Origin: Rubripirellula sp.
GTDB lineage: Bacteria; Planctomycetota; Planctomycetia; Pirellulales; Pirellulaceae
Reading direction: 5' to 3'
Length of the DNA stretch: 35,200 bases
Assembly: GCA_012270065.1 (NCBI GenBank)
Contig: JAAXJB010000066.1
Coordinates: forward strand, 4,361-39,560
Positions 1,009 through 34,295 of the stretch are shown piece by piece (positions within the stretch are counted from its first letter, which is position 1; every line of letters starts with the position of its first letter). The notes under the pieces are model-generated. The model ran no database searches. It saw only the letters and a program-made list of their open reading frames with translations, and was not told the DNA's origin. The position numbers and the translations under genes were made by a program.

Positions 1009-1095
1009 TTGGATTGCTGCGACTTGGGACCTGCCACATGCAGGGCCCTTCTGATCAATTCGATCTTCACCACAAACCTGACACCATGGATACCC

Positions 1096-7588: not shown

Positions 7589-8164
7589 ATGCTACAACAA
7601 CCATCCATGTCCAGCGCAGCAGCAGATCAGGATTTGAGTATCGTGCAAATACCAAAAGTATCGAGGTGCTGGCGAAGTCGTCTTGAGGATGGACCAAGAC
7701 GTACATATGGTCGGTGGCTGCCCGGCACATCAAACCAGAAACCAATGCTTGACTGCATTCCTTGCCAGACCGAAAAAGACAAAACCATCTACACCGTGTC
7801 TTTTTCAACCACAGTTCCCGATGCTGCACCTGTCATGGCAGGCAAGCGCAGCATCATCAACTTCAAAAGTCGCTTGGATCGTCCTGCTGATCTGTATGTA
7901 GGAATGACCATGAAAACTGCTGAGGGAAACTTTGCGGGCAGATTCCAGGTGGTACTGCCAAGCAGTGAATTCCAGTCCGGTGCTGCTTTCAATTACTCTG
8001 TTGAAATAGAAGATTTCACACTTGATCCCTCTCTTTCGACAATGAAGAACGACCCCGACACATCAACCGATCAACTGATTGTGGAATCGATGTGGTTGCA
8101 CACGCTTTATCAACAGGCTGGACGTGCAGTCACCTCGGTGGAACTCACGGAGAAAACTGAATGA
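7589..8164 (+). CDS. Beta-rich hypothetical protein, possibly the remnant of a longer (FecR-associated type?) gene
   Basis: An open frame of 191 codons whose stop overlaps the sulfatase start by four bases (ATGA), implying translational coupling. The first ~60 residues are poor in family-like features and carry no signal peptide. The C-terminal ~110 residues look like a real beta-sandwich (SIINFKSRLDRPADLYVGM, NFAGRFQVVLPSSEF, FNYSVEIEDFTLDP). This reminds me of the jelly-roll region that ends planctomycete FecR-type anti-sigma proteins, but I cannot confirm it. The true start may lie further downstream, for example the ATG encoding MLDCIPCQ near 7746, or the gene may be a frameshifted remnant of something starting upstream. 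Confidence 0.5.
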   Translation: MLQQPSMSSAAADQDLSIVQIPKVSRCWRSRLEDGPRRTYGRWLPGTSNQKPMLDCIPCQTEKDKTIYTVSFSTTVPDAAPVMAGKRSIINFKSRLDRPADLYVGMTMKTAEGNFAGRFQVVLPSSEFQSGAAFNYSVEIEDFTLDPSLSTMKNDPDTSTDQLIVESMWLHTLYQQAGRAVTSVELTEKTE

Positions 8165-9699: not shown

Positions 9700-9769
9700 A
9701 CGGGCTCAACATTTGACAACCAACGAAGCAACACATGACACATCGGATCCACACCCTGCTAACCCTCAA

Positions 9770-11365: not shown

Positions 11366-11409
11366 CCGACGCGCAAGCGGATAACGTAAACACCGACTCC
11401 ACAAATGAC

Positions 11410-13812
11410 ATGAAAACCATCCTCACATTGTGTTACTCGCTCCTGCTGACTGCGTTTGCCTCTGCAGAAGTCAAGCAACCGAATGTCATCACCCTGCTCG
11501 TCGACGATCTGGGCTACCGCGACCTGGGCTGTTATGGTGGCCCTGTGAAGACCCCGGTCCTCGATGGCCTGGCTGCAGGTGGCGTGCGCTTCACCGACTT
11601 CCACTCCGGGGCGCCCGTCTGCTCACCCTCACGAGCCACCTTCCTGACCGGCCGTAACCACATCCGCGCCGGAGTCTATTCCGTCCTCAGTGAACAGCGT
11701 CACAGAATGCATTTGCTTCGGAGTGAAATAACTCTCGCCGAAGTTCTGAAAGACGAAGGCTACTCCACGGCGCATTTTGGCAAGTGGCACCTCGGCATGC
11801 CCGTCAACGGGCGCGACAATCCTACCCCGGCCGATCATGGCTTCGACTACTGGTTCGGCCTGGTCAATGGGGCTCACCCCAGTCACAAAGATCCCACCAA
11901 CTTTCTGCGGAACGGCAGACCGGTCGGACCAATGAAAGGCTACGCCTGCCAGATCGTCGTTGACGAAGCCATTGCCTGGCTCAAGGAGAAACGCGACACC
12001 GACGCTCCCTTTTTCCTCAACCTCTGGTTCAATGAGCCCCATGCGGTCATCGCGGCTCCCGAAGAGATTGTCTCCGAATATGGCGATCTCAACGATCAAG
12101 CCGCCATCTACAACGGCACCATCGATAACACCGATCGCGCTATCGGGCGCCTTCTCGCAAGGCTGGAAGAACTTGGCGAGCTCGACAACACCATCATCAA
12201 CTACTCCTCGGACAACGGCAGTTACCGCCAGGATCGGTGTGGCAAACTGCGAGGGAAAAAGGGATCGCACTTCGAAGGCGGCCATCGCGTCCCGGGAATC
12301 TTCTACTGGAAAGGAAAAATCCCTGGCGGCCGTGTCGAGGATGAGCCAGCTGGAGCCGTCGATCTTCTGCCCACAATCTGCGGACTGCTCGGCATCGACA
12401 AACCAAAAGACGTTTTCCTCGACGGCTCCGATCTCACGCCTCTTCTCACCCGGACAGGTGCCTTTGAACGCCACCAGCCTCTCTTCTGGATGAACGGCTC
12501 CACCATGGTTCTTCGCATGGGAGACTACACCCTCTCAGCCCCGAATACGGCAAAACTCCCTTTTGACAACGCGAAGGCAAGTCGCTTGCTGCAGCAGACA
12601 AAGACGGCCCTGGGGGACGACATTGAAAAAGAGCTGGGGGGATTGGATCTACGTTCCCGCATGTTCAACGGCAGATTCGCAAATCCCGAGGCCGATCAGC
12701 TTCGCGATGAATTCCGGGCCATGTTTTACTTCAATGAAGCCCTGATACCACTGATGAAGAAGGGAGGCGTCAATCAGGTTCAACTCTACGACCTTGCAAC
12801 CGACCGGAGCCAGCAGCAAGACATCGCGGCTCAAAAGCCGGAAATCGTCTCCCGAATGAAAGAGAAAGCCAACGCCATTTTCCAAAGCGTCATGGTCGAC
12901 GCTCCGGAATGGCTCCCACCCAGAGAGCAGGCCGCAGCAAACAGGCATCGCGAAAATACACCAAACCGATCCGACCTCGAATCATCCAACACCGATACTG
13001 CAGACCTCCTGGCCCGGATCGACAAGAACAGTCTTCCGAAGGGCTACCAGGGAAGCCTCCACCAGAGTTACGTCGATCGCGTTATGGCAGGCCTCCAACC
13101 CGAACAGCGTGCCCGGGTCGGCCGGCTCTGGAAACAGAAACGTCACCTCGATCCTGACATGCCCAACCCGGGAGCCTCTTTTGTCAGAATCCTCACCCAT
13201 GTCGCCGTCGCGGCAGAAAAAAACAAACGTCCCAAAGTTGCAATTGATCCGCAGGAAAATGCTGGAACCCGTTCCTCCACTGCAAAGAATGCCGCAGCTG
13301 AAAAACAGATGCAAATCCATCGGCTGAAAACAACAAAACGTTCCCGGTTTGATGCTTTTGCTTACCTCAATCGCATTCCTCTGGAACGCGAAATCGATGA
13401 AACACCTGATGACTTGAGCGGACGTATTCTGGGCCGCTTGGCCAACCAGGAAGGGCGTGTTCTGGTAAAACTTCCACCAGGCATGAATCGGATTGCTTAT
13501 CAGGGATTCAAAATCGCTCTGGACAGTGGACAAGCCCTGCATGCAGGAAACTGTTTCTCCTGCCATCAGCTTCCTGATTGCTCGCTCGCTACTTCAAAGC
13601 CCGTCACACCTTCCCTCCGCAATACTTCCTATTCGATCAAGCAACTGCAGCAAGTCATCAAGACCGAACCGCATCGCGATCTTCAACTTGATGAGAGTGA
13701 CCTCAACCGGTTGCTGGCTTTACTGAAAACACTCAACGATGTTCCCGATGCAGACTTCCGGAACTTGATCCTCAACGCCACCGTCCTCGACACTTCTGGA
13801 GAACTGGAATGA
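11410..13812 (+). CDS. Sulfatase fused to a C-terminal cytochrome c-like domain
   Basis: About 800 residues. ATG 11410 is chosen over an in-frame TTG at 11362 because it begins a signal peptide (MKTILTLCYSLLLTAFASA-E). Residues 22-500 form a sulfatase with DD 32-33, C71-S-P-S-R75-ATFLTG, GYSTAHFGKWHLGM, SSDNG (D268, N269) and HFEGGHRVP, a paralog of the sulfatase at 8161. About 300 further residues follow. Residues 531-600 are a module shared with the next gene (LPKGYQGSLHQSYVDRVMAG, VGRLWKQKR, GASFVRIL). Then come a charged linker and a cytochrome c-like domain with C715-F-S-C718-H719 and PSLRNTSY. The stop overlaps the next ATG by four bases. A normal sulfatase ends near 500, so this is an unusual fusion. 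The sulfatase part looks richer in C-ending codons than the tail. Confidence 0.93.
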   Translation: MKTILTLCYSLLLTAFASAEVKQPNVITLLVDDLGYRDLGCYGGPVKTPVLDGLAAGGVRFTDFHSGAPVCSPSRATFLTGRNHIRAGVYSVLSEQRHRMHLLRSEITLAEVLKDEGYSTAHFGKWHLGMPVNGRDNPTPADHGFDYWFGLVNGAHPSHKDPTNFLRNGRPVGPMKGYACQIVVDEAIAWLKEKRDTDAPFFLNLWFNEPHAVIAAPEEIVSEYGDLNDQAAIYNGTIDNTDRAIGRLLARLEELGELDNTIINYSSDNGSYRQDRCGKLRGKKGSHFEGGHRVPGIFYWKGKIPGGRVEDEPAGAVDLLPTICGLLGIDKPKDVFLDGSDLTPLLTRTGAFERHQPLFWMNGSTMVLRMGDYTLSAPNTAKLPFDNAKASRLLQQTKTALGDDIEKELGGLDLRSRMFNGRFANPEADQLRDEFRAMFYFNEALIPLMKKGGVNQVQLYDLATDRSQQQDIAAQKPEIVSRMKEKANAIFQSVMVDAPEWLPPREQAAANRHRENTPNRSDLESSNTDTADLLARIDKNSLPKGYQGSLHQSYVDRVMAGLQPEQRARVGRLWKQKRHLDPDMPNPGASFVRILTHVAVAAEKNKRPKVAIDPQENAGTRSSTAKNAAAEKQMQIHRLKTTKRSRFDAFAYLNRIPLEREIDETPDDLSGRILGRLANQEGRVLVKLPPGMNRIAYQGFKIALDSGQALHAGNCFSCHQLPDCSLATSKPVTPSLRNTSYSIKQLQQVIKTEPHRDLQLDESDLNRLLALLKTLNDVPDADFRNLILNATVLDTSGELE
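13003..13209 (+). other. Module A copy 1 (shared 68-residue segment) within the sulfatase-cytochrome fusion
   Basis: Residues 532-600 of the fusion protein align without gaps to residues 605-672 of the next gene's product, with about 35 of 68 identities by hand count. Shared anchors are IDK, LP--Y, HQ-YVD, MAG, VGRLW, PD, GA and FVRIL. It sits between the sulfatase domain and the cytochrome c-like tail. Confidence 0.85.
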
Positions 13813-16346: not shown

Positions 16347-17851
16347 TCACGGCGTCACGAACCAAAAACCGCGCTTTCCCGAGTGCTTTGGGTGCAGTCC
16401 TTCTTGCCGGACTGATGCTGGCCAACTCACTTCAAGCGGATTGGCCGCAATTCCGAGGCAACAATTCCGATGGAATTGGCACGGGTTCGCCACCCACAGA
16501 GTTTGGTCCCGACAACAATGAGTTGTGGCATACCACCCTGGCACCGGGACACAGCTCGCCCTGCATTTCAGGCAAACGTATCTTTGTCACCACCTATGAC
16601 AAAGATGAGTCAGCGGTCGCCGTGGTCTGTTTGAATCGGATGACAGGACAAGTGCTGTGGGAAAAAAAGATCACGGTTGAGAAACTGGAAGATGGTCACC
16701 CCTCATTCAATCCGGCCAGCAGTTCACCCTGCTGCGATGACCAGGGCGTGATTGCCTACTTTGGTTCCTACGGCTTGATCTGCCTGGATCTGAATGGCAA
16801 TCTGCTTTGGGAAAAAAAGCTGCCCCTGACCAGATCATTTTCCGGCAATGCCACCTCACCCATGATCGCGGGTGACAACGTGATTCTGTACCGCGGCAAT
16901 TATGTCGACCACTATCTGGTGTGTCTCGACAGGAAAACGGGCGAAGAACGCTGGCAGATTCCCCAAAAAGAAAAGTTCACTGGCGAGATGGCCTGCACTG
17001 CCTGTCCCATCATCGTGGGTGAAAAACTGATCTGTCACACCGCGAGGTCTGTTCAGGCTTTCGACATCAAGACAGGGCAAACAGTCTGGACGGCGAAATG
17101 TGCAACGACAGCAACAAGCACACCTGTAGTGGCAGGAAATGAGATCATTGTTGCTGCGTGGAATAAACTTGGCGAACCCGATCTCAGGCCACCTTTTCCA
17201 ACCTTTGAAAAACTACTGGCTGACCATGATCAGAATGACAACCAGCTGATCGAAAGAAAAGAGTTTCCCAAACTCTGGATTTTCCACCGCCCGGAGGGGA
17301 TCGAAGCCGCCATGAATGGTGCGCCCGTCTCCTGGAAACACGCCAACAAAAATGGTGATGCAAATCTCAATCGTGAAGAGTGGGAGAAGGCGGTGGATGA
17401 GTTGGAACGCTTTCGGGCGGGTTATGAAACGCATGGATTACTTGGGATCCCAATCGACAGTGAAGGTTTCGTCGCCGCGGAGGATGTCCGAACGCTGGCC
17501 ATCGATGGTATTCCGGAAGTTCCCAGTCCGATCTTTGATGGCACGCATGTCTATCTGGTCAAGAACGGTGGATTACTGACCTGCATCAATCTCGCCGAAG
17601 GCGAGCGGGTTTATCGGACTCGAACGCGAGGAAAGGGAACACACTACGCATCACCGCTGATCGCCGATGGCAAACTCTATACCTTTGCCGGCGACGGGCA
17701 AATCAGCGTCATCGAACTGGGGCCATCGCATCGAATTCTGGCACAGAACAGGATGCCCGATGGTGTTTACGCAACTCCAGCAATCATCGACGGTGTCATC
17801 TATGTGCGCACCCACTCGACTTTGTATGCCTTTCAGGAAACCGACGACTGA
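16343..17851 (+). CDS. PQQ-like beta-propeller protein with an inserted EF-hand pair
   Basis: 502 residues. The ATG overlaps the previous stop by four bases. The signal peptide spans about residues 10-32 (GAVLLAGLMLANSLQA). The mature part starts DWPQFRGNNSDGIG, the usual opening of planctomycete PQQ-like (BamB/WD40-like) propellers, and repeats blades such as VVCLNRMTGQVLWEKK, LICLDLNGNLLWEKK, YLVCLDRKTGEERWQ and VQAFDIKTGQTVWTA. Between blades, at ~285-355, is an insert with two EF-hand loops: D296-Q-N-D-N-Q-L-I-E-R-K-E307 and N335-K-N-G-D-A-N-L-N-R-E-E346. These imply calcium binding. The family name does not prove PQQ binding, and no dehydrogenase catalytic residues were recognised. It is embedded in the overlapping gene set and shares one base with the next gene (TGATG). 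Confidence 0.93.
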   Translation: MITASRTKNRAFPSALGAVLLAGLMLANSLQADWPQFRGNNSDGIGTGSPPTEFGPDNNELWHTTLAPGHSSPCISGKRIFVTTYDKDESAVAVVCLNRMTGQVLWEKKITVEKLEDGHPSFNPASSSPCCDDQGVIAYFGSYGLICLDLNGNLLWEKKLPLTRSFSGNATSPMIAGDNVILYRGNYVDHYLVCLDRKTGEERWQIPQKEKFTGEMACTACPIIVGEKLICHTARSVQAFDIKTGQTVWTAKCATTATSTPVVAGNEIIVAAWNKLGEPDLRPPFPTFEKLLADHDQNDNQLIERKEFPKLWIFHRPEGIEAAMNGAPVSWKHANKNGDANLNREEWEKAVDELERFRAGYETHGLLGIPIDSEGFVAAEDVRTLAIDGIPEVPSPIFDGTHVYLVKNGGLLTCINLAEGERVYRTRTRGKGTHYASPLIADGKLYTFAGDGQISVIELGPSHRILAQNRMPDGVYATPAIIDGVIYVRTHSTLYAFQETDD

Positions 17852-20358
17852 TGTTTTCCGATAGATGCATTACAAATCGATCGATCGCAAGCAAGGGATA
17901 CGTGCATTTCAGTGATCTGCAAACCGCCATTCATTGGCGACATATGGCGGTCATGACTTTACTGCTCTCGCTGTTATCCTGCAGCCGGTTGGCAGCCGAA
18001 GCACCCTCAGCATTGAATACGCTTATCCAGGATTCCTGCATCGATTGTCACGATGAGAATACGGAAACCCGAATCGACTTCACAGATCTCGACCAGAACT
18101 TCAAAGACCCCAGCACGTTTCGTTCGTGGGTCCAGATCGTGGACCGTCTACAAAAAGACGAAATGCCTCCGGCATCAGAACCTCGACCCGACTCACGAAC
18201 GAAAGTCGCCGCGCTGAAATTCCTCAACACGAAACTCCTCGACGCTAACCGCTACCTGCAGAAAACCCGCGGCCGAGTCCCCTCGCGACGCCTATCGCGA
18301 GTTGAATACGAACACACCTTGCATGATCTGCTTGGCATTGGCGGCCAGATTGCAAAGTTACTTCCGCCGGAAAACAAGTCAGGGTCCTTTGACGTCGTCG
18401 CGGCAAAACAGGACATGTCCAACGTGCATGTCAAAGGCTTCCTCAAAGCTGCTGACGCCGCACTCGACGAAGCGATTCAACTCGGGCCCGAGCCGAAAAT
18501 AATGCACGAGCTTGACTACGTGAATTCGCGTTACATGCAAATGTGGTTTGAGCGTTCGGTACGCCGGGGCGGAGGGACGGTTTTCCCAGACCAGGATGAT
18601 CTCATCATGTTCCGCGGCGAGAATTACAATTTGCGTTCTGACGCCAACGGTTTGCGGTTTCCTGTTGCCGGCCGATACCGGATCACTGTCACCGGCGCGG
18701 CTTATCAGCCAAGGTCTTCGGTAACGATGAGTCTTAAACGCCAAAACGACATTCAAGGCGACAGCGAATTGTTTGCCGCGTGGGACGTAGACGAAAAGCT
18801 CCGCACGGTATCAACGATCAAATACATGCGTACCGACGACTATTTTTACGTTAGCGGCGACGAGCTTGAACCTGCGCCTGACGGAAAAATCATCTACAAC
18901 TCACAACCGGCGAGCGAATTCAAAGGTGAAGGCGTCCGGGTGCGCAGAGTTCTTATCGAAGGTCCGCTGGAGTCCACCTGGCCCCCACAACGTACGCGAG
19001 CTCTGTTTCCCGGCGTCGAATGGGAACCAGCCGCAAACGGTCGCTATTACCGGCCAATTACCAGAAAATCCCATTACGAACACATTCGTGATGCTGTTGC
19101 AGCGCTTGCCCCCAGAGCATTTCGACGACCAGTGACAGATGAAGAAATCCAGTACTTCACGAATCTTGCCGTACCGGCACTCGAAGCCCGGCGCGGTTTC
19201 ATTGCCAGCGCTCGCGTACCACTGCGCGCCATCCTGATTGCACCCGAGACGCTTTTTCTGACCAACGAAACGCAATCCACGGAATCGGCGCTGACAAATC
19301 ATGCACTCGCCAGCCGGTTGGCATACTTCCTGTGGCGCAGCCTCCCCGATGAAGAACTCATTGAACTGGCCAATGACGGAAACCTTGCCGATGCCGGAAC
19401 ATTGGATGCCCAGGTCAGCCGGATGTTATCCGACCAACGAAGTGAGAGGTTCATCAATGAATTTCTTGACCAATGGCTTGATCTGGATCTGATCGACGCA
19501 ACCACGCCTGACGCGTATCTGTACCCGGAATACGATGACGTTCTCCGTCGAGCCATGCTGGCCGAAACGCGACTCGTCTTCCGGCATCTCATTGACGAAG
19601 ACCTCAGCATTACCCATCTCATCGACTCCGACTTCACATTCCTCAACCGAAAACTCGCTGAGCACTACGGGATTGATGGAGTCAAAGGCGAAGAGATGCG
19701 AAAAGTAATGCTCGACAAGGACAGCGTGCGCGGGGGTATTCTGGCCCATGCATCCATCGCAAAGGTGACGGCGAACGGAACCGTGACGACCCCCGTCAAA
19801 CGGGGCAGTTTTGTTCTCACAAATCTGCTGGGCCAGCCTCCCAATCCTCCACCACCAGGGGTTGGTTCAATCGAACCTGACACCCGAGGAGCAACCACCA
19901 TTCGCGAAACACTGGCAAAACACCAGGCAGTCGAAGCCTGCGCAACCTGTCACCGAAAGATTGATCCACCTGGTTTTGCCTTGGAGTGTTTTGATCCCAT
20001 CGGCAACTACCGACAGCGATACCGGCTCAGCAAAGGCGTCAAACGCAGTGCCGTCACCGGTCTTCGATTTCTACACAAGGATTACAACCTCGGTCAGTCA
20101 GTTGACTGCAAGGGACAGACAGAGGACGGCTTCACTTTTACTGACATTCGTGATTTCAAAAAGCATCTCATGAAGTCGAAGGATCAGGTGGCGCGAAACC
20201 TGGTCTCAAAGTTGATCACATTTGCCACAGGTGCTGAAATCCAGTTTGCTGATCGCGAGAAAGTGGAAGCCATTTTGAATCGTCACAGGAATTCCAACTA
20301 CACTTTGAAACAGTTGATTCATGAGGCAGTACGCAGCCAGATGTTTCAATGCCGGTAG
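17851..20358 (+). CDS. Planctomycete cytochrome protein (DUF1587/DUF1595/DUF1592/DUF1588/DUF1585)
   Basis: 835 residues from ATG 17851, which shares one base with the upstream stop. A start at 17944 would leave a more standard leader (MAVMTLLLSLLSCSRLAAEA). A cytochrome-like motif C63-I-D-C-H67 is followed by EMPPASEPRP. DUF1587 is near 145-208 (RLSRVEYEHTLHDLLGI). A beta-rich central region spans ~220-400. DUF1595 is near 408-470 (APRAFRRPVTDEEI), DUF1592 near 484-610 (LASRLAYFLWRSLPDEEL) and DUF1588 near 627-722 with a second CxxCH, C697-A-T-C-H701, before RKIDPPGFALECFDPIG. DUF1585 is at the C-terminus (LITFATGAEIQFADRE). Such genes are regularly paired with a DUF1552 gene, present six bases downstream. 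The likely role is an envelope redox or structural protein; the reaction is unknown. Confidence 0.94.
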   Translation: MFSDRCITNRSIASKGYVHFSDLQTAIHWRHMAVMTLLLSLLSCSRLAAEAPSALNTLIQDSCIDCHDENTETRIDFTDLDQNFKDPSTFRSWVQIVDRLQKDEMPPASEPRPDSRTKVAALKFLNTKLLDANRYLQKTRGRVPSRRLSRVEYEHTLHDLLGIGGQIAKLLPPENKSGSFDVVAAKQDMSNVHVKGFLKAADAALDEAIQLGPEPKIMHELDYVNSRYMQMWFERSVRRGGGTVFPDQDDLIMFRGENYNLRSDANGLRFPVAGRYRITVTGAAYQPRSSVTMSLKRQNDIQGDSELFAAWDVDEKLRTVSTIKYMRTDDYFYVSGDELEPAPDGKIIYNSQPASEFKGEGVRVRRVLIEGPLESTWPPQRTRALFPGVEWEPAANGRYYRPITRKSHYEHIRDAVAALAPRAFRRPVTDEEIQYFTNLAVPALEARRGFIASARVPLRAILIAPETLFLTNETQSTESALTNHALASRLAYFLWRSLPDEELIELANDGNLADAGTLDAQVSRMLSDQRSERFINEFLDQWLDLDLIDATTPDAYLYPEYDDVLRRAMLAETRLVFRHLIDEDLSITHLIDSDFTFLNRKLAEHYGIDGVKGEEMRKVMLDKDSVRGGILAHASIAKVTANGTVTTPVKRGSFVLTNLLGQPPNPPPPGVGSIEPDTRGATTIRETLAKHQAVEACATCHRKIDPPGFALECFDPIGNYRQRYRLSKGVKRSAVTGLRFLHKDYNLGQSVDCKGQTEDGFTFTDIRDFKKHLMKSKDQVARNLVSKLITFATGAEIQFADREKVEAILNRHRNSNYTLKQLIHEAVRSQMFQCR

Positions 20359-23105: not shown

Positions 23106-23150
23106 CACTTTTTAACTTCATTGCTTCATTCTCCTTACCGGACTCACCTC

Positions 23151-25022
23151 ATGTCTCGAGTGATTGGATTGGCTGCCTGTTTGATTCTCACCACCATGCC
23201 TCTCGTCCGTGGCGTTGATCATTGGACGCGCTTTCGCGGCGACGATGGTAATGGCGTGGCAAAAGACAATGCCAAACTGCCAACCCGGTGGAGCACAACA
23301 GAAAATGTCCGATGGGCAGTTGATGTTCCGGGCTGGGGATGGTCCTGCCCAATCGTCTGGGGCGACAAGGTTTTTCTGACGACCGTTGTCAGTGACGAAC
23401 AGAATCTCGCCCCCAGTAAGGGACTTTATCTCGGGCAGGGAGTCCGGGATCCGGGCAAGGGAATCCACCATTGGATGGTTTTCTGCTTTGACTTGAACAC
23501 CGGTCAGACCATCTGGAAACACGAGGCGCACACGGGCCAACCGCAAGTGCCCCGACATCCCAAGAGTACTTATGCAGCTGAGACCGCCACAACCGACGGT
23601 GAACGACTCTATGTCCTGTTCGGCGATGTGGGCCTGTACTGTTACGACCTCGATGGAAAATTGCTGTGGTCACGGGATATCGAACCTCGAAAGACGTTCA
23701 TGGACTATGGGGCCGCAGCCTCTCCTGTCGTACACGACGGCCAGGTATTTGTGGTCTATGACAATCTCGAGAAATCATGGATTGCATCCTTCGATGCAAA
23801 AACCGGAAAAGAGCGTTGGAAGCGGGAGCGTAATGAAACCCACTCATGGGCAACGCCATTGATCTGGCAAAACGAAAAACGCACCGAAATTGTTGTTCCC
23901 GGTAAAAAGTCCAACCGCAGCTACTCACTCGCCGGAGATCTTCTCTGGGAATTTGATGGAGAGATGTCTAACCTTGTCATTCCGTCACCGATGAGTGCAC
24001 ACGGAATGTGCTACATCGCATCAGGATATGTAGGTGATGCCCATCGACCTACTTTTGCAATCAAGCCTGGCGCAAGCGGAAATATCACGCCGGATGGAGA
24101 CTACACCGACAATGAATTCATTGAATGGTACCAGGGGACATCATCGTCCTATAATCCAAGTCAAACTGTTTATGGGGACTATCTTTATACGCTGTATGAT
24201 CAGGGATTCCTGACCTGTCATGACGCCCGGACCGGTGAACAGGTCTATGGAAAGAAACGCTTCTCACCCTCAGGATCATTCACGGCATCACCATTTGCCT
24301 ACAACGGTTACCTGTTCTGTCTGAGTGAAGACGGGTTGACGTATGTAATCAAAGCCGGCGAAAAGTTTGAAATTGTTGCGCGCAATGAACTCGATGAACT
24401 ATGCATTGCATGCCCGGCAGTGGTCGGTGACAAATTGCTGATCCGAACCGCCTCGAAACTTTACTGCCTTTCTGAGGGGTCACAACTCGATCCCACCATG
24501 GCAGCCCAATTGAAACCACGACGCTCATCGAACCCCATCAACGATATCTGGGCAGCAGCCACAGCGGGTGACAACACCGCAATCAGACGATTTCTGGATG
24601 CCGGGGTCGGTGTGAATGCGAAACAGGGACGACGTGGTGAAACGCCTCTGCGTAAAGCCATTCTTAAAAACCGGATCGATTCTGCCCGGTTACTGATGGA
24701 ACGAGGAGCCGATGTCAACTTGAAAGGACCTGATGGCAATACGCCACTTCATCTGGCAGCTTTTTTCGGAGATCAAACTCTGGTCAAACTGCTGCTGGAA
24801 AAAGGAGCCGATGCCAACATCATGAATCCCAAGGGAGAAACCGCGTTGGACCTTGTATCCAAAGACATGGATTCCCAATTGCAAAGGGTCTATCAGAATA
24901 TTGGTCAGGCCATGAATCGCGAATTTGATATCAGCCGCTTGCAGAAAGTGCGACCACAGATCGCTTCTTTGCTGAAGCAGAACATGGCCAGAACAAGCGA
25001 AGATAATCCGACACCGGAATGA
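23151..25022 (+). CDS. PQQ-like beta-propeller fused to C-terminal ankyrin repeats
   Basis: 623 residues from ATG 23151. An in-frame TTG at 23121 is less likely because the ATG begins a signal peptide (MSRVIGLAACLILTTMPLVRG). Residues ~22-445 form a PQQ-like propeller (DHWTRFRGDDGNG, CFDLNTGQTIWKHEA, LYCYDLDGKLLWSRD, IASFDAKTGKERWKRE, TCHDARTGEQVYGKK). After a short linker (LKPRRSSN) come ankyrin repeats at about 461-575: DNTAIRRFLDAGVGVNAKQ, ETPLRKAILKNRIDSARLL, DGNTPLHLAAFFGDQTLVKL and LLEKGADANIMN. A helical tail follows. Ankyrins imply a protein-binding role for an exported scaffold. It lies 148 bases after the previous propeller gene, so it may have its own promoter. Confidence 0.93.
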   Translation: MSRVIGLAACLILTTMPLVRGVDHWTRFRGDDGNGVAKDNAKLPTRWSTTENVRWAVDVPGWGWSCPIVWGDKVFLTTVVSDEQNLAPSKGLYLGQGVRDPGKGIHHWMVFCFDLNTGQTIWKHEAHTGQPQVPRHPKSTYAAETATTDGERLYVLFGDVGLYCYDLDGKLLWSRDIEPRKTFMDYGAAASPVVHDGQVFVVYDNLEKSWIASFDAKTGKERWKRERNETHSWATPLIWQNEKRTEIVVPGKKSNRSYSLAGDLLWEFDGEMSNLVIPSPMSAHGMCYIASGYVGDAHRPTFAIKPGASGNITPDGDYTDNEFIEWYQGTSSSYNPSQTVYGDYLYTLYDQGFLTCHDARTGEQVYGKKRFSPSGSFTASPFAYNGYLFCLSEDGLTYVIKAGEKFEIVARNELDELCIACPAVVGDKLLIRTASKLYCLSEGSQLDPTMAAQLKPRRSSNPINDIWAAATAGDNTAIRRFLDAGVGVNAKQGRRGETPLRKAILKNRIDSARLLMERGADVNLKGPDGNTPLHLAAFFGDQTLVKLLLEKGADANIMNPKGETALDLVSKDMDSQLQRVYQNIGQAMNREFDISRLQKVRPQIASLLKQNMARTSEDNPTPE

Positions 25023-25359
25023 ACCGGCGGCGAGTCGAGTCTGGTCACAGGAAAGGTCGACTTATCGCCACGATGGAGAACTTGCGGTTGATTGCCGTAC
25101 CCACATGAAAAATCGAGTTCCTGATCTGACTGACGCGCTCGGGTCACGGTATCTGATTCCTTGCCAACGGAGTCCTGTTGGAAGCCCATTTGCGAGCCAA
25201 AACGTCTCCATCAATCAACACTCGTTTTCAGATTGCAGGGATCGCTTGCTGAGAACACACGGAAAAAACAGCCCACCGTCGCCTGTAGTTCCGGGGTTTG
25301 TGATTTACAATGAGGGTTGGCCGTTCTGGCCCACTGCTCCCTTCCTCACGAGAAATGAT
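25023..25359. other. Intergenic leader before the 25360 sulfatase
   Basis: 337 bases with no separate gene. The sulfatase frame stays open upstream to an ATG near 25105, but that extension has no signal peptide and places ~85 odd residues before the real leader, so I treat it as non-coding. The only element noted is the possible -10 box at 25306. Confidence 0.6.
25306..25311 (+). promoter_or_regulatory. Possible -10 box (TACAAT) upstream of a sulfatase gene
   Basis: TACAATGA lies 48 bases before the ATG at 25360 and resembles the TAGAATGA elements at 5133 and 28862. No clear -35 element is seen. Confidence 0.22.
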
Positions 25360-26901
25360 ATGCCCCGCGCCCTTTGGACTTCTGTCCTGATTGCTTGCCT
25401 GATACCGATTCTGTCTGCTTCTGCTCAAGGCGAAAAACCCAATGTGATTGTGATCATGGCGGATGACCTTGGATATGGAGACCTCTCCTGCTACGGAGCG
25501 ACATCACTGAAAACACCTCACATCGATCGACTCGCAGAGGGTGGATTGCGATTCACCAATGGGTACTGCTCCGCATCCACTTGCACGCCAACGCGTTATT
25601 CGATGCTGACCGGCACGTATGCCTTCCGTGGCGAGCGGACTGGAATCGCACCACCAACGGCACCAGCAATCATCAAACCTGGAACAGAGACTGTTGCAAC
25701 GATGCTCCAGCGAGCCGGATACAAAACAGCAGTGATTGGAAAATGGCATCTTGGTCTTGGTGGCCCTGATGGTCCGGACTGGAACGGCGAGCTGAAACCC
25801 GGCCCACTGGAAATCGGTTTTGATACCTGTTTTCTGTTGCCCACCACCAACGACCGGGTGCCTCAGGTTTACGTTCATGATCATCGGGTTCCCAATCTCG
25901 ATCCTGCTGACCCTCTATGGGTTGGCACGAAAAAGCCGAGTCCGGATCATCCCACCGGCGTCACGCATCGCGATACCCTGAAGATGGACTGGTCTCATGG
26001 TCATAATGCGACCATTCATAACGGGATCAGTCGTATCGGTTTCTACACCGGTGGGCACGCAGCACGCTTCCGCGACGAAGACCTTGCTGACAAGTGGGTC
26101 GAAAAATCGGTCGAGTTCATCGAAGACCACCAAAAAGAGCCATTCTTTCTGTTTTTCTCATCGCACGACATTCATGTCCCCCGGATTCCACATGAGCGTT
26201 TTCAGGGGAAAACCAAACTCGGATTTCGTGGAGATGCCATTATCGAACTTGACTGGTGCGTGGGCGAATTGATGAAAACCCTCGACCGCCTGAAGCTCAC
26301 AGAAAATACGCTGGTTGTGTTCTGCAGTGACAACGGCCCCGTGATGGATGACGGCTACAAAGACGAAGCACTTGAAAAAGTCGGGAATCATCGGGCGGGT
26401 GGTCCATTCACCGGTGGAAAGTACAGTGTCTATGAAGGCGGCACACGCACTCCCTTCATCACTTCGTGGAAAGGACGCATTGCCCCCGGAACCAGTGACG
26501 AAGTGGTCTGCACCATCGATTTGGCAGCCAGTCTTGCCGCTTTGACCAACCAGAAACTGACCTCAGATGGATACCTCGACAGTTTTGACGTGATCGGGGC
26601 GATGCTGGGTGACGAAAACGCCAAAGGCCGTGATCATCTTGTCCAACAGGACAATGGCAATAACGGAACGCTGGCGCTGCGAAGCGGCAAATGGAAACTC
26701 CATCGATACGGTAAGAACTTTGCCCGTAACGTGGTGGTAGAGAAAAAGCTGGCCAATACCAAAGTGACCAAATTCCAGCTCTTCGATTTGGACAAGGATC
26801 CTGCAGAGAAAAACAACATCATTGCAGAGAATCCTGAAGTCGCCGAACGACTCAAGAAACAGCTCGATGAGATCGTTCAATCAGGTCGCAGTCGCTCGTA
26901 A
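25360..26901 (+). CDS. Arylsulfatase-like sulfatase, exported
   Basis: About 513 residues. ATG 25360 is chosen because it directly begins a signal peptide (MPRALWTSVLIACLIPILSASAQ). Motifs: DD 35-36; C75-T-P-T-R79-YSMLTG, the formylglycine site; GYKTAVIGKWHLGLG; SSHDIHVPRIPHERF, a substrate-side histidine region; and CSDNGPV. The text between GKWH and the DNG motif (GPLEIGFDTCFLLPTTNDRVP, split as GPLEIGFD and LLPTTNDRVP) is typical of arylsulfatase A-like planctomycete enzymes. Length is normal. It ends LDKDPAEKNNIIAENPEVAERL, the common family C-terminus. It converges with the next sulfatase gene across a 132-base spacer containing a strong hairpin. Confidence 0.94.
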   Translation: MPRALWTSVLIACLIPILSASAQGEKPNVIVIMADDLGYGDLSCYGATSLKTPHIDRLAEGGLRFTNGYCSASTCTPTRYSMLTGTYAFRGERTGIAPPTAPAIIKPGTETVATMLQRAGYKTAVIGKWHLGLGGPDGPDWNGELKPGPLEIGFDTCFLLPTTNDRVPQVYVHDHRVPNLDPADPLWVGTKKPSPDHPTGVTHRDTLKMDWSHGHNATIHNGISRIGFYTGGHAARFRDEDLADKWVEKSVEFIEDHQKEPFFLFFSSHDIHVPRIPHERFQGKTKLGFRGDAIIELDWCVGELMKTLDRLKLTENTLVVFCSDNGPVMDDGYKDEALEKVGNHRAGGPFTGGKYSVYEGGTRTPFITSWKGRIAPGTSDEVVCTIDLAASLAALTNQKLTSDGYLDSFDVIGAMLGDENAKGRDHLVQQDNGNNGTLALRSGKWKLHRYGKNFARNVVVEKKLANTKVTKFQLFDLDKDPAEKNNIIAENPEVAERLKKQLDEIVQSGRSRS

Positions 26902-27033: not shown

Positions 27034-28584
27034 TCAAGGAATCACGGGCAATAACGGTGTCTTGCCGTCATCGGGTGATACCGGGTAGAGCGCTTGATGT
27101 GCTTCCAGACCAGACTTCAGTTTTCCGACCATCTCTTTCAATACAGCAGGTTCCGTATCTGCAAGATTGGTGGACTCAAACGGATCAGAAGCAAGATTGT
27201 AAAGCTGGTAATGACCGCCCTCTGATCCTTTTGATGGAATGTAGTGGTAGATCACTTTCCAGTCTCCGTCCCGATACGTTGTGAAGTAATTACTCCGATG
27301 GGGCGAATGCGGATAATGCATCAGAAAAACTTCATCACGGGAAGCATCGGGTTGAGCCGTGAGAAGTTTTCCCAGATCGACTCCGTCAACAGCGTGACCA
27401 TCGGGTGACTTTGCACCCGTCAATCTGGCAATGGTCGGGTAAAGATCCTGAACCGCGGCAACCTGCGTTTGCAGGGTTCCGGGCGAAATCCCGAGCTGTT
27501 TCTGGTGCTTGTTGTTCTCACTCTGTTTGGCCCACGCCGCAATGAATGGAACTCGCATGCCACCTTCGTAATGTGCACCTTTCTTGCCGCGCAACGGCGC
27601 CGCACATGCCACCGCGTGCTGGTGGCCCAAGGGAGCATCGGAACCGTTATCACCCACAAAGAATACGAGCGTGTTTTCTGAAACTCCCAGAGCATCAAAG
27701 TGATCCAGCAAGTCACCAAGTGACTTGTCCATTCCCTCAATCAGCGTCGCGAATGCCTGCGCATTTTTTGGCTTGCCGGAATCTTTGTAGTGGTCAGCAA
27801 ATCGCGGATCCGAATGAAATGGTCCGTGCACGGCATAGTGCGACATGTACAAATAAAACGGCTTTCGCTTCAGGACGGAATCAGAAACGCGTTTCTTGGC
27901 TTCCAGTGTGATCGCTTCCGTCAAAAATGTATCGGAACCATGATATTGCTTGAGGTGAGGGACAGCGTGATGCGCACGCTTGGTCCCCAGGCCATAGTTG
28001 TCTTCGCCGTAATAACTGCCCGGCGCACCAAAGGAAGCCCCACCCACATTCACATCGAATCCGAGATTCAGTGGCTCAGAACCTTCGGTTCCATCTGGCC
28101 CAAAATGTCCTTTTCCCACGTGGATCGTCTGATAGCCGACTTTTCGAAGGAGTCTGGGCAGAGTCACATCGCTGCCTTTCAAGCCTTGCCAGTTCCACTG
28201 CGGCGGACCATGAGGACCCCGATTATCATTCCGTGGATTGATCCAGTTGGTGGCATGGTGCCTGGCCGCATTCTGGCCGGTCATGATTGAAATCCGTGTC
28301 GGCGAACACACGCTCATGGCATAAAAGTTGTTGAATCGCACTCCTTGAGCAGCCAATCGCTGCATGTTGGGCGTTCGGTAATAGTCGTTCAGCGGATATC
28401 GCTTCGGCTTTCCTTTTTCATCCGTCAGGAACGGTACCGAAGTATCCATCACACCCATGTCGTCGACCAGAAAGACAACGATGTTGGGCGCTTTTTGTGC
28501 TGCATTCGCAGCAGCTCCTGTGTGCCATACCAAAGATGTTACAACGACAGTCAGGCTGGTAACCAGCAAAGATATTTTGTTCAT
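27034..28584 (-). CDS. Sulfatase with a GKGH variant of the second signature, exported
   Basis: 516 residues on the minus strand. A signal peptide spans residues 1-28 (ISLLVTSLTVVVTSLVWHTGAAANA). Motifs: DD 41-42; C93-S-P-T-R97-ISIMTG, the formylglycine site; HVGKGHFG at 156-162, where most sulfatases have GKWHLG; YMSHYAVHGPF; VGDNGSD; and HYEGGMRVPFIAAW. The insert between DDMG and YYRTPNMQRLA (VPFLTDEKGKPKRYPLNDY) is longer than in the other sulfatases here and marks a different subfamily. The C-terminus retains YNLASDPFESTNLADTEP. The gene converges with the 25360 sulfatase and diverges from the large PQQ gene, so it is a separate transcript. Confidence 0.94.
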   Translation of the reverse strand: MNKISLLVTSLTVVVTSLVWHTGAAANAAQKAPNIVVFLVDDMGVMDTSVPFLTDEKGKPKRYPLNDYYRTPNMQRLAAQGVRFNNFYAMSVCSPTRISIMTGQNAARHHATNWINPRNDNRGPHGPPQWNWQGLKGSDVTLPRLLRKVGYQTIHVGKGHFGPDGTEGSEPLNLGFDVNVGGASFGAPGSYYGEDNYGLGTKRAHHAVPHLKQYHGSDTFLTEAITLEAKKRVSDSVLKRKPFYLYMSHYAVHGPFHSDPRFADHYKDSGKPKNAQAFATLIEGMDKSLGDLLDHFDALGVSENTLVFFVGDNGSDAPLGHQHAVACAAPLRGKKGAHYEGGMRVPFIAAWAKQSENNKHQKQLGISPGTLQTQVAAVQDLYPTIARLTGAKSPDGHAVDGVDLGKLLTAQPDASRDEVFLMHYPHSPHRSNYFTTYRDGDWKVIYHYIPSKGSEGGHYQLYNLASDPFESTNLADTEPAVLKEMVGKLKSGLEAHQALYPVSPDDGKTPLLPVIP

Positions 28585-32053: not shown

Positions 32054-32455
32054 ATGAAAACAGATAAGAAACCACAACGGGAAACACAGGCAGCGATTGA
32101 GGCGTTGGTTACAGGGCCGGGGGCCGTGTTGTATATGCCTCAGTTTCGTGGCGAGTTTGTGTTGGCCCGGGTAGAGTTTGGCAAAGACGAACAGGGCAGG
32201 TTCATGAAGTGGGTTGGTATCAACCCAGAAACCGGCCACGACATTCATTGGACGGGGTACAAACGACTCGACAGTGTTGGCGACTATCTGTTTTTGTTGG
32301 GCAACGACGACGAACTGATCGCAGAAGTAAGCACTCTGGAGGAAGCCCCATACACGGAGGCCGAGGTGTTGCGTGGCCGGTTGGAAAAGTGGCGGCACAT
32401 ACTAACCCTCCACAACAACCAGAGGAACTTTGATGAATTCTTCGACAATGAATGA
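32054..32455 (+). CDS. Small hypothetical protein
   Basis: 133 residues, no signal peptide, no membrane segment. I do not recognise it. The sequence is balanced and looks coding: a central beta-rich part (GPGAVLYMPQFRGEFVLARVEF, split as GAVLYMPQF and GEFVLARVEF; WVGINPETGHDIHWTGYKRL) followed by a helical acidic part (YTEAEVLRGRLEKWRHILTL). CCAGG just before the ATG is a weak ribosome binding site. It is one of few cytoplasmic-looking products in the window, and its T/G-rich stretches (GGGGGCCGTGTTGT) differ from its neighbours, perhaps indicating a separate origin. Two exact 13-bp direct repeats lie just upstream. Confidence 0.62.
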   Translation: MKTDKKPQRETQAAIEALVTGPGAVLYMPQFRGEFVLARVEFGKDEQGRFMKWVGINPETGHDIHWTGYKRLDSVGDYLFLLGNDDELIAEVSTLEEAPYTEAEVLRGRLEKWRHILTLHNNQRNFDEFFDNE

Positions 32456-32564
32456 ACCCGCCTTGCCACGTGCAAATTTCCAGTTTTCTGAAACTTCCGG
32501 CAGTCCCGGGGGTTACAACCAGAATGCATAAAAAACTCGCCTCATTGCCACCGGGTGCCGGATC

Positions 32565-33932
32565 ATGATTCGTTCAGCATTAGTGCTTCTTCCCATCCTC
32601 AGTTGCACCATCATGCCGATTTTGGCGCAAACACCTCGCAACCCCCGTTCCCGTGGTGGTAGCAGTCAAATGCCCCAACCGGGAACGATCCTCCCCACGG
32701 TGAAAGTGGTTGATGAACAAGGCCGAGATTTTTCGACCGCCAGTCTCCGCGGTAGTTACACCGTGCTGGTATTCGGTTGCCTGACCTGACCGCCTTTTCT
32801 CAGAAATGTCCCCAGTTTGGAGACAGTGCAACGTGACTATCAGCCCAAAGGGGTGAAGTTCTATTACATCTACAAGGCATTGGCTCATCCGGAAAACTTC
32901 GGTTACGTCACACCTTTCAACCTCAAAGAACGGTTGATGCATGTGGCCGAAGCAAAAAAGAGTCTCGGGACACAGATTCCATGGCTCTGTGACAACATGA
33001 ATAACGATTTGAAACATGCTCTGGGTAATCGGCCCAACTCGGAATTCATCATCGACCCGGATGGAAAAATCGTGATTGCCAGAGACTGGAGCCAACCGGA
33101 AAAATTGCGTGCCGATCTGGAACGACTGGCAGGTCCCATCACCAACCCAACCACTATCAAAGATCTGGATCTGCCCACTCGTGAACCACCGCAACAGGCA
33201 CGAACAGGAATCGTCGAGCGTATCACTCTTCCAGACAACATGTCTCCTCTCAAGATGACCGCCAGAAAATCGGACGCGCCTCACTATGCAAAACTGCGTG
33301 CTGAAATGAGTGGTGATCAACTCTATCTGGGGTTCTTCCTTGACCCCCTTTATCAAGTTCACTGGAACAACAAAGCTCCGGCATTGAGTTTCAGTATCGA
33401 AACGCCATCTGACGTTTCCGCAACGCCGTCAAGTGGCAAGGCTGAGAAGGTTGAAGTCGATGCTGATGCTGACCCTCGTGAGTTCCTTGTCACCATCGAT
33501 GGCCGATCCGCCGAACCACTGATCGTAACGGTCAACTACTTTGCCTGTGATGATGCTGAAACATTCTGTGTCCCGGTGACGCAACAGTACGAAGTTTCAT
33601 TTGAACGTGATCGCGACGGTGGATCACGAAGAAGATCCGGTGACCGAATGACTCAAAACCGTGGTCCTGGTGGAGGTCCGATGATGGGGGAAATGATGCG
33701 ACGCATGTCCATCATGCGAGCACTGGATGGCAATGGTGACGGAGAGATTTCTGCAGTGGAAATCGAAGCTGCCCCCCAATCGCTGCGCGAAATCGATCAA
33801 GATGGTAACGGCCGACTGAGTCGTGAAGAGATTCGAGGTGAAGGTATCGGCGGTCCGGGTGATCCACGATCGAGAAGACGACCGATGCAACGGTTTGGAA
33901 ACCCGCGATTCCGTGATTTCTCACCGAACTGA
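32565..33932 (+). CDS. Predicted selenoprotein: deiodinase-like thioredoxin-fold domain, DsbD-alpha-like domain and EF-hand pair (TGA 32787-32789 read as Sec)
   Basis: One frame of 455 residues with a single in-frame TGA at codon 75. It starts MIRSALVLLPILSCTIMPILAQ, a signal peptide (possibly lipoprotein-like). Across the TGA the peptide reads TVLVFGCLT-U-PPFLRNV, matching the iodothyronine deiodinase active site (FGSCTUPPF) and forming a C72-x-x-U75 redox pair. The thioredoxin fold continues (KFYYIYKALAHPENFGY, with the deiodinase-type HP; FIIDPDGKIVIARDW) to about residue 190. Residues ~208-346 resemble a DsbD-alpha-like beta domain ending VTVNYFACDDAETFCVPV (C328, C335). EF-hand loops are D388-GNGDGEISAV-E399 and D411-QDGNGRLSRE-E422. 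A SECIS-like hairpin lies at 32807-32825. A pseudogene or a TGA error is the alternative, but conservation on both sides argues against decay. Deiodination itself is not implied; peroxide or disulfide chemistry is equally possible. Confidence 0.85.
32787..32789 (+). other. In-frame TGA proposed to encode selenocysteine
   Basis: The TGA lies between codons for GCLT and PPFL, exactly where deiodinases and related redox proteins have Sec (or Cys in homologs). The frame is open on both sides from 32565 to 33932. Confidence 0.83.
32807..32825 (+). promoter_or_regulatory. Putative bacterial SECIS hairpin
   Basis: TGTC-C-CCA-GTT-TGG-A-GACA: a 4-bp lower stem, one C/A mismatch, a 3-bp upper stem and a three-base apical loop starting with G. 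The loop is 26-28 nt after the TGA. Bacterial SECIS elements lie within the coding region close downstream of the UGA and need a G early in a small apical loop, so position and form fit. The stem is short and needs folding and homolog comparison. Confidence 0.65.
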
Positions 33933-33943
33933 TCTTCGGATCA
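33930..33943 (+). other. Small UUCG-type hairpin over the selenoprotein stop codon
   Basis: TGATC-TTCG-GATCA: a 5-bp stem with a stable tetraloop beginning at the stop codon. No T-tract follows, so a terminator role is uncertain. Confidence 0.35.
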
Positions 33944-34097
33944 AGAAATGGGAAACACTGTCGCCTCATGAGGCAAGCGATCCGAATCCGAAGGCACATC
34001 GATCGCGTTTGGACAGCGAATGCTGGCAGTTTGCCGCTGCCAACCACTGAAAAGGTCCGTTTGAAGCGGCGACATCATCGTCTGAACGGCCCGGCTG

Positions 34098-34295
34098 TTA
34101 TTCGCCGAGCGCTTCTCTGACAAGAGCTTCAATGTCCATTCCGCCCGTACCGATGGAATCCATGATCGAATCGTGCTGGGTTTTTTCCTCATAGTCCTCA
34201 ACACGCGTGATGATCGACTGAATTTCTTCAGGACCATGTCCACGTTCGACAAGATAATCTTTCAGGACCTGATAATTGTCTTCGTTGGATGCCAT
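34098..34295 (-). CDS. Small acidic helical protein, unknown function
   Basis: 65 residues on the minus strand, with GGAG placed 8 bases before the ATG. The sequence is coherent and helical: YQVLKDYLVERGHGPEEI, then IITRVEDYEEKTQHDSIMDSI, ending MDIEALVREALGE. No signal peptide or cysteine is present, so it is probably cytoplasmic. I do not recognise a named family. It stands alone, facing the selenoprotein gene across 165 bases in which I see no clear terminator. Confidence 0.7.
   Translation of the reverse strand: MASNEDNYQVLKDYLVERGHGPEEIQSIITRVEDYEEKTQHDSIMDSIGTGGMDIEALVREALGE

What the first reader, a model, noticed from the sequence alone, without database searches (positions are those of the whole stretch)
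32565..33932. Bacterial deiodinase-like selenoprotein hidden by an in-frame TGA
Seen: the frames 32565-32789 and 32790-33932 are the same frame, separated only by TGA, with no other stop. The peptide across it is GCLT-U-PPF, almost the iodothyronine deiodinase active site, and it makes a CxxU pair. The downstream sequence is a coherent thioredoxin-like fold with the deiodinase-type HP motif. A standard gene caller would give a 74-residue fragment plus a truncated 'hypothetical protein'. Known: vertebrate deiodinases use Sec in SCTUPPF, and deiodinase-like proteins occur in bacteria. Inference: this is an expressed, exported selenoprotein.
Basis: partly seen in the sequence, partly recalled or inferred. 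Interest (0 to 1): 0.93.

Follow-up and report, generated by a model that had tools for sequence, protein, structure and literature searches.

The report
Planctomycete selenoprotein with tethered reductase-like domain
A planctomycete gene that standard software would cut in two at a stop codon very probably encodes one exported selenium-containing redox protein, related to thyroid-hormone deiodinases and joined to what looks like its own electron-supplying domain.

Summary
In detail: one frame, 32565-33932, broken only by TGA at 32787-32789. That TGA is almost certainly selenocysteine (Sec). Of 128 related loci, 100 have TGA there and 28 a Cys codon. The host has tRNA-Sec, selA, selB, selD. 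In its family SelA accompanies 57 of 67 Sec-form genomes and 0 of 21 Cys-only ones. A hairpin after the TGA, with an invariant loop G, is kept by compensatory changes in Sec forms and not in Cys forms.

The name needs correcting. The first domain is a thioredoxin-fold relative of deiodinases but is under Pfam's deiodinase cut-off.

Best reading: exported two-domain selenoenzyme; Sec75 reacts, Cys72 resolves, the tethered domain re-reduces. Sec insertion about 0.97, relay about 0.55, substrate unknown. Bacterial deiodinase-like selenoproteins have been in print since 2005 (PMC1088965 passages); this CxxU, DsbD_N-like fusion was not found in searches.

The parts
32565..33932 (+). Whole selenoprotein gene, 455 residues including Sec75, ending at TGA 33930-33932
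   Evidence: single internal TGA; start kept as MIR(S/T).. or MMIRS.. in close relatives L025-L028
32565..32630 (+). Probable signal peptide (residues 1-22, ...PILAQ)
   Evidence: read by eye; no signal-peptide program was available
32679..33134 (+). Thioredoxin-fold, deiodinase/redoxin-like domain (about residues 39-190)
   Evidence: AhpC-TSA 33.1 bits and Redoxin 29.4 bits, both over cut-off; NF038285; two-domain model pLDDT 92.4 matching ResA and DIO3
32778..32780 (+). Cys72, proximal Cys of the CxxU motif, proposed resolving residue
   Evidence: Cys in 65 of 65 rows
32787..32789 (+). In-frame TGA = Sec75
   Evidence: TGA in 100, TGT in 19, TGC in 9 of 128 related loci
32807..32825 (+). SECIS-like hairpin (bases 18-36 after the TGA), loop G at 32815
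   Evidence: 96.5% of 434 cells paired, 32 cells changed on both sides; loop G in 62 of 62 Sec forms against 2 of 22 Cys forms
32988..32990 (+). Cys142, possible counterpart of the deiodinase distal Cys
   Evidence: Cys in 48 of 52 other Sec-form rows and 2 of 12 Cys-form rows of A1
33228..33614 (+). DsbD_N-like beta-sandwich domain (about residues 222-350)
   Evidence: PF11412 in 25 of 49 members at E<=1, best 2.4e-5, window protein 0.016; model pLDDT 91.5, ten best PDB matches are nDsbD structures
33546..33569 (+). Cys328 (33546-33548) and Cys335 (33567-33569), conserved pair of the second domain
   Evidence: 64 of 65 rows each, the remaining row a gap; invariant in the 56 rows of A2
33723..33836 (+). 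EF-hand-like calcium-binding motifs in an Arg/Gly-rich tail
   Evidence: PF13202, PF00036 and PF13405 over cut-off for the whole protein, best stretch residues 407-424; the first motif was read by eye

Best explanation
The gene encodes an exported two-domain selenoenzyme. SHOWN by sequence evidence: UGA codon 75 is read as selenocysteine with the help of a hairpin that starts 18 bases downstream. The N-terminal domain has a thioredoxin fold of the deiodinase/redoxin group, with Cys72 three residues before Sec75. The second domain resembles the N-terminal (alpha) domain of DsbD and keeps a Cys pair. INFERRED: Sec75 attacks an oxidised or halogenated substrate in the cell envelope. Cys72 then forms a selenenylsulfide with it, as the proximal Cys does in human DIO1. 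The tethered DsbD_N-like domain (Cys328/Cys335) reduces that bond within the same molecule and is itself recharged by the host's membrane DsbD. I think a peroxide, sulfenic-acid or disulfide substrate is likelier than a thyronine-type one. Rough odds: Sec insertion 0.97; Sec-Cys72 chemistry 0.7; intramolecular relay 0.55.
For: tRNA-Sec 70.8 bits, over cut-off and by ARAGORN; selA 515 bits, selB 297 bits, selD 260 bits, all over cut-off and these three together on contig C73. Sec/Cys exchange at codon 75. SelA over cut-off in 57 of 67 Sec-form genomes against 0 of 21 Cys-only genomes. Hairpin covariation. Third-base-biased divergence on both sides of the TGA but 0-1 differences in the 21 bases at 16-36 after it, against four close relatives. 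Cys72 invariant, Cys328/Cys335 in 64 of 65. DsbD_N hits and nDsbD structure matches. Confident two-domain model, pTM 0.87. The host has one DsbD_TM protein, with DsbD_N and thioredoxin parts. DIO1 proximal-Cys selenenylsulfide: PMC9141512, passages and part of the abstract.
Against: No Rfam family matched the region at E<=1, and the window's own hairpin region is not unusually stable (z +1.19). Two of the five covariation measures are no better than shuffles (105 and 153 of 500). DsbD_N is under the Pfam cut-off for the window protein (15.7 against 25 bits); Foldseek TM-scores to nDsbD are modest (0.39-0.44 by query length), with NEAT and adaptin-ear folds close behind; a sequence-profile search of the PDB with this domain gave no nDsbD; a profile comparison with the host's own DsbD N-terminal part was not significant. 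No model coordinates were available, so the distance from Sec75 to Cys328/335 was not measured. Three Sec-form assemblies (G187, G228, G229) show no SelA, SelB or tRNA-Sec over cut-off. Sec and Cys forms are separated by one change on the tree, so repeated switching is not shown.
Confidence: 0.75

Rival explanations
1. It is a reductive dehalogenase in the strict deiodinase sense, removing iodine or bromine from an aromatic compound met in the sea or on algae.
For: TUPPF and HP motifs, NF038285 kinship, DIO3 as best solved match to the family profile and a DIO3 structural match at rank 30 with 24% identity over 175 columns.
Against: Below the PF00837 cut-off. In the alignment with DIO3 most of the loop insertion is missing (gaps of 6 and 2 residues), with the Trp and second His that fall in those gaps, and the relay Glu is replaced by Leu (one search read with PMC11592359 passages).
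Confidence: 0.1
2. It is a thiol-disulfide reductase of the ResA/TlpA type, for example for cytochrome c or copper-protein maturation, and the DsbD_N-like domain delivers electrons to it.
For: After six DipZ chains, ranks 7-25 of the structure search are ResA or a Bacillus thiol-disulfide oxidoreductase; the NCBIfam ResA model hits 42 of 65 members at E<=0.1, best 4.2e-7; DsbD passes electrons through its alpha domain to envelope proteins (PMC4460558 passages).
Against: The usual second Cys of a CxxC motif appears to be Phe78 here (my reading; ResA motif recalled), leaving CxxU with Sec in the second place. No neighbour gene is shared across the family in flanks of up to 4 kb; the neighbours were not named one by one.
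Confidence: 0.25
3. The TGA is a sequencing error or a nonsense mutation and the gene is broken or split.
For: Standard translation gives two fragments.
Against: Same TGA in 100 of 128 loci, purifying selection on both sides, full Sec machinery, codon-level conservation of the hairpin.
Confidence: 0.01
4. The second domain is a substrate-binding or structural beta-sandwich rather than an electron relay.
For: NEAT, adaptin-ear and other sandwich folds score nearly as well; W-N-N and D-x-x-P-R motifs are as conserved as the Cys pair.
Against: Near-invariant Cys pair with six residues between; DsbD_N is the commonest Pfam hit (25 of 49 members at E<=1, best 2.4e-5; the next family 4 of 49, best 0.11).
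Confidence: 0.3

Closest known systems
Bacterial deiodinase-like selenoproteins (PF00837; Sargasso Sea and GOS surveys)
   Same: Trx-fold domain, Sec and Cys forms, bacterial SECIS, presumed redox role (PMC1088965 and PMC2398784 passages)
   Different: Two reviews list the motif as UxxC (PMC9312934 and PMC13188914 passages); the GOS table gives none. Here it is CxxU with Phe at the UxxC position, and there is a DsbD_N-like domain. Whether the survey sequences include this subfamily could not be checked: only passages were seen and the alignments are figures.
Iodothyronine deiodinases DIO1-3
   Same: T-U-P-P-F, Tyr and His-Pro in the aligned places, a proximal Cys, and a distal Cys 67 residues after Sec (69-76 in deiodinases, PMC9141512 passages)
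   Different: Proximal Cys at -3, not -2; most of the loop insertion, the relay Glu and the second His are absent in the alignment; an extra domain; thyroid hormone is not an expected bacterial substrate
DsbD N-terminal (alpha) domain, PF11412, PDB 1jpe/3pfu
   Same: Beta-sandwich with a Cys pair near its C-terminal end; in DsbD it passes electrons on to envelope proteins (PMC4460558 passages)
   Different: Tethered to a Sec domain with no DsbD transmembrane part seen; C-x6-C spacing; sub-threshold Pfam score in the window protein
ResA/TlpA and AhpC/TSA redoxins
   Same: Fold and general place of the reactive residue
   Different: No second Cys of CxxC (my reading); no Prx PxxxTxxC motif (motif recalled)
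GOS fusion selenoproteins (Prx-PP2C, Prx-like 3/Unknown_3 and others)
   Same: Trx-fold selenoproteins fused to Cys-bearing domains (PMC2398784 section 9)
   Different: None of those named in that section is a deiodinase-like/DsbD_N fusion; Unknown_3 has a CxxC among three conserved Cys

Membership tests
Bacterial selenoproteins | In-frame TGA with homology continuing past it and Cys at that place in relatives | tested here: met
Bacterial selenoproteins | tRNA-Sec, SelA, SelB, SelD in the genome | tested here: met
Bacterial selenoproteins | SECIS hairpin just after the UGA with G in a small apical loop | tested here: met
   definition from PMC1088965 passages; no Rfam family matched
Bacterial selenoproteins | Selenium found in the expressed protein | not testable with these tools
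   needs labelling or mass spectrometry
Iodothyronine deiodinase (PF00837) | Score over Pfam's gathering cut-off | tested here: not met
   22.8-23.7 against 27 bits for the window protein; the best of 65 relatives reaches E 5.2e-10
Iodothyronine deiodinase (PF00837) | Loop insertion, relay Glu and second His of DIO enzymes | tested here: not met
   gaps and a Leu in the alignment to DIO3 chain 4tr3; residues named in PMC11592359 passages
Iodothyronine deiodinase (PF00837) | Removal of iodine from thyronines | not testable with these tools
   enzyme assay needed
NCBIfam NF038285 deiodinase family protein | Score over curated cut-off 250 | tested here: not met
   50.4 bits; still 65 of 65 relatives match at E<=0.1
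AhpC/TSA and Redoxin superfamily | Score over Pfam's cut-off | tested here: met
   33.1 against 26 and 29.4 against 26.6 bits
DsbD_N (PF11412) | Score over Pfam's cut-off | tested here: not met
   15.7 against 25 bits in the window protein; 25 of 49 relatives match at E<=1, best 2.4e-5
DsbD_N (PF11412) | nDsbD fold | tested here: inconclusive
   nDsbD are the ten best PDB matches, but E 7.6e-4 to 6.6e-3 and TM 0.39-0.55

The most novel reading that the evidence does not exclude
A self-contained envelope selenoenzyme: a deiodinase-fold Sec domain that carries its own DsbD-alpha-type reductase on the same chain, so that in planctomycetes and acidobacteria it reductively removes halogen (or peroxide oxygen) from marine substrates using electrons handed directly from membrane DsbD, without glutathione or a free thioredoxin. 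It would be a bacterial counterpart of the deiodinase cycle with a built-in electron supply.
Probability: 0.25. Interest if true: 0.8.

Novelty: new variant of a known kind. Interest (0 to 1): 0.6.

Why it matters
Selenoproteins of this subfamily sit in dozens of planctomycete and some acidobacterial genomes, and plain gene calling would cut each at its reactive residue. [quoted passage not shown] It also offers bacterial Cys and Sec forms to compare side by side.

Tried and rejected
Rfam scan of 32400-34200: no match at E<=1. Folding the window's own hairpin alone: z +1.19, no support; the support comes only from comparison. A paralogue in the own genome: none beyond two matches to the EF-hand tail. 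A conserved neighbour gene: none; besides the gene itself, the only cluster shared with the window is a PQQ-propeller gene upstream, in 8 of 61 sources counting the window. Repeated Sec/Cys switching: not shown, one change on the tree, SH-aLRT 81. Homology to the host's own DsbD N-terminal part by profile comparison: not significant. Sequence-profile search of the second domain against the PDB: best E 1.7, a lectin. A weak NCBIfam hit of the EF-hand tail to a type III effector model (19.7 against a cut-off of 120 bits): rejected as an EF-hand match. PF00837 search of the own genome found nothing, not even this gene, and its controls did not ring, so it says nothing. Plasmid collection: one distant hit, a Mycolicibacterium deiodinase-like protein. 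The idea that Sec-form genomes without SelA disprove the case: 6 of the 10 have SelB over cut-off; G227 has tRNA-Sec 8.9 kb from the start of its contig, where in G226 and G232 selA lies 10-11 kb from tRNA-Sec, so a contig break is a fair explanation there; G187, G228 and G229 stay unexplained. Two papers holding both 'deiodinase' and 'planctomycet' (PMC13405943, PMC6627142) were seen as a listing only and not opened.

Full report
WHAT IS IN THE SEQUENCE. The frame starting at 32565 runs 455 codons to a terminal TGA at 33930-33932 and meets one internal TGA, codon 75 at 32787-32789. Conventional ORF calling gives 74 aa (32565-32789) and 371 aa from a TTG at 32817, so the N-terminal part and the reactive residue would be lost from the longer product.

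IS THE TGA SELENOCYSTEINE? Four lines say yes. (a) Machinery: the window's genome (G000, 6.99 Mb, 122 contigs) has tRNA-Sec at 70.8 bits (also ARAGORN), and selA, selB and selD, all over cut-off and together on contig C73. (b) Exchange: in 128 related loci the codon is TGA in 100, TGT in 19 and TGC in 9. The 128 include the window's own locus, distant relatives and some genomes that came in through two collections; 104 remain after collapsing loci identical around the site. In the near family (L024-L133) the motif is GC(L/M)T-U-P or GCLT-C-P throughout. (c) Co-occurrence: a search of 241 genomes of the same family found 164 with some match, many of them weak. From the listed rows with E below about 1e-50 I counted 67 genomes with the TGA form (G109 has both forms and is counted here) and 21 with only a stop-free form; 17 of those 21 were read and have Cys, four (G143, G144, G148, G150) were not fetched at that gene. 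SelA over the curated cut-off is present in 57 of 67 and 0 of 21 (Fisher p 4e-13, which ignores kinship), and in 63 of the other 153. Of the 10 Sec-form genomes without SelA, 6 have SelB over cut-off; G227 has tRNA-Sec near a contig end; G187, G228 and G229 have none of the three over cut-off. (d) Hairpin: in 62 Sec forms the 48 bases from the TGA align without gaps. The stem of bases 18-36 after the TGA is 96.5% paired over 434 cells, against at most 56.7% when slid, with 32 cells changed on both sides (shuffle mean 9.3; 0 of 500 as high). Two further measures, the number of pairs with a change on both sides and the number of pair types, are no better than shuffles (105 and 153 of 500). The outermost pair occurs as C-G, U-A and G-C, and is unpaired in 9 of 62. 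The loop G is present in 62 of 62 Sec forms and 2 of 22 Cys forms. With one more, mostly mismatched position counted, Sec forms pair in 435 of 496 cells and Cys forms in 75 of 176; two stem pairs that hold in 59 and 60 of 62 Sec forms hold in 0 of 22 Cys forms, while three others hold in most Cys forms too. Against: Rfam finds nothing and the single-sequence fold is unremarkable.

SELECTION. Against four close relatives, differences fall mostly on third codon positions both before and after the TGA, while the 21 bases at 16-36 after it differ at 0-1 sites. This argues strongly against a pseudogene or an error.

ANATOMY. (1) A likely signal peptide, judged by eye. (2) A thioredoxin-fold domain, about residues 39-190: AhpC-TSA and Redoxin over cut-off, T4_deiodinase under it. 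In the 65 members of A1, T4_deiodinase is hit in 59 and AhpC-TSA in 63 at E<=0.1, and NCBIfam's deiodinase family in 65, though the window protein is far under that model's cut-off (50.4 against 250). The family profile's best solved match is mouse DIO3; with the single sequence DIO3 ranks second. Cys72, Thr74, Sec/Cys75, Pro76, His108 and Pro109 are invariant. (3) A second domain, about 222-350, with W-N-N and D-x-x-P-R motifs and Cys328/Cys335 kept in 64 of 65 rows, the other row being a gap. Pfam DsbD_N matches 25 of 49 members at E<=1, best 2.4e-5, but only 0.016 in the window protein. An AlphaFold2 model of it (pLDDT 91.5) has nDsbD structures as its ten best PDB matches, with modest scores (E 7.6e-4 to 6.6e-3; NEAT and adaptin-ear folds follow). 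A sequence-profile search of the PDB gave no nDsbD, and a profile comparison with the host's own DsbD N-terminal part was not significant. A two-domain model has pLDDT 92.4 and pTM 0.87; its best matches are DipZ, ResA and, at rank 30, DIO3 with 24% identity over 175 columns. (4) An Arg/Gly-rich tail with EF-hands. A rough pattern finds EF-hands in 28 of 62 Sec forms and 4 of 22 Cys forms, so the tail seems optional.

THE THIRD CYSTEINE. Cys142 is Cys in 48 of 52 other Sec-form rows but in 2 of 12 Cys-form rows. It lies 67 residues after Sec75; vertebrate deiodinases keep a 'distal' Cys 69-76 residues after Sec, with an unsettled role (PMC9141512 passages). In the alignment with DIO3 the two Cys are in the same segment but not the same column.

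MECHANISM. In human DIO1 the proximal Cys forms a selenenylsulfide with Sec, which is what glutathione reduces (PMC9141512, passages and part of the abstract). In E. coli, electrons flow to the DsbD alpha domain and then to envelope proteins (PMC4460558 passages). This protein appears to have both halves on one chain, and the host has one DsbD with DsbD_N, transmembrane and thioredoxin parts. I therefore propose Sec75 as nucleophile, Cys72 as resolving residue, Cys328/Cys335 as tethered reductant and DsbD as source. Every step after Sec insertion is inference. Most of the deiodinase loop insertion, the relay Glu and the second His are missing in the alignment (with PMC11592359 passages), so I favour a peroxide, sulfenate or disulfide substrate; dehalogenation is not excluded.

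DISTRIBUTION AND HISTORY. Sixty loci in genome contigs are mostly planctomycetes by record title, with six titled Acidobacteria/Acidobacteriota, Solibacteraceae or Terriglobia (L072, L075, L079, L088, L099, L101) and two titled only 'bacterium' (L060, L103). In an even draw of 392 genomes of the phylum, 55 match at 1e-10; four of the 63 matched stretches cover nearly the whole profile, the rest only part, chiefly the first domain, and 51 of 63 hold a TGA (3 of them also a TAG). These stretches were not read further. On a tree of 65 rows all 53 Sec forms lie on one side of a single branch (SH-aLRT 81), so the Sec form looks old and no repeated loss is shown.

WHAT IS KNOWN. Bacterial deiodinase-like selenoproteins with Sec and Cys forms were reported in 2005 (PMC1088965 passages) and counted again in 2008 (PMC2398784 passages and section 9). 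Two reviews list the family with a UxxC motif (PMC9312934 passages; PMC13188914 passages). A planctomycete genome paper describes Sec machinery and selenoproteins including fdhA and fmdB (PMC4807772, passages and section 17), but its candidate list is in a supplement I could not see. Six literature searches led me to no description of this fusion; of their listings I opened the five papers named in this paragraph, and the library holds open-licence papers only.

VERDICT. Very probably a real selenoprotein, and a new variant of a known kind: a CxxU deiodinase-like redoxin fused to a DsbD_N-like domain. Calling it a deiodinase would overstate what was tested.

Noticed in passing
L134-L137 (G138, G135, G131, G115); L135:686-1798: Other genomes of the same family encode a separate TGA-bearing protein with the vertebrate-type motif GSCTUPPF; L135 scores 88.6 bits in T4_deiodinase (cut-off 27) and has EF-hands.
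   Followed up: partly
L144, L145, L148, L149, L152, L153: A further Cys-form group with GNFTCGPF at the same place; none of the 16 distant relatives with a closed frame shows the second domain's motifs.
   Followed up: no
L019 (G000 contig C73): The host's selD lies in a 754-residue frame with a long N-terminal extension and CRGCGCK; it looks like the Ndh-SelD fusion described from GOS (PMC2398784 section 9). The extension was not scanned.
   Followed up: partly
L164:166-2742: The only DsbD_TM match found in the host is a protein with two DsbD_N stretches and a C-terminal thioredoxin part.
   Followed up: yes
G187, G228, G229: Sec-form genes in assemblies where SelA, SelB and tRNA-Sec were not found over cut-off; missing contigs or recent loss of decoding.
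   Followed up: partly
G200 contig C146:13165-15513: Two Sec-form copies of the family side by side on the same strand.
   Followed up: no
window 8161-13812, 25105-26901 and 27034-28584: Five sulfatase genes in one window.
   Followed up: no
window 1009-3681 and 17851-20358: Planctomycete PSCyt/PSD multi-domain proteins, one with a planctomycete cytochrome c domain.
   Followed up: no
window 23121-25022: A PQQ-propeller stretch followed by ankyrin repeats in one protein.
   Followed up: no
L165 (NZ_CP126902.1 plasmid of Mycolicibacterium vanbaalenii): A gene annotated as deiodinase-like protein on a plasmid, next to carboxymuconolactone decarboxylase family and glutaredoxin-domain genes.
   Followed up: no
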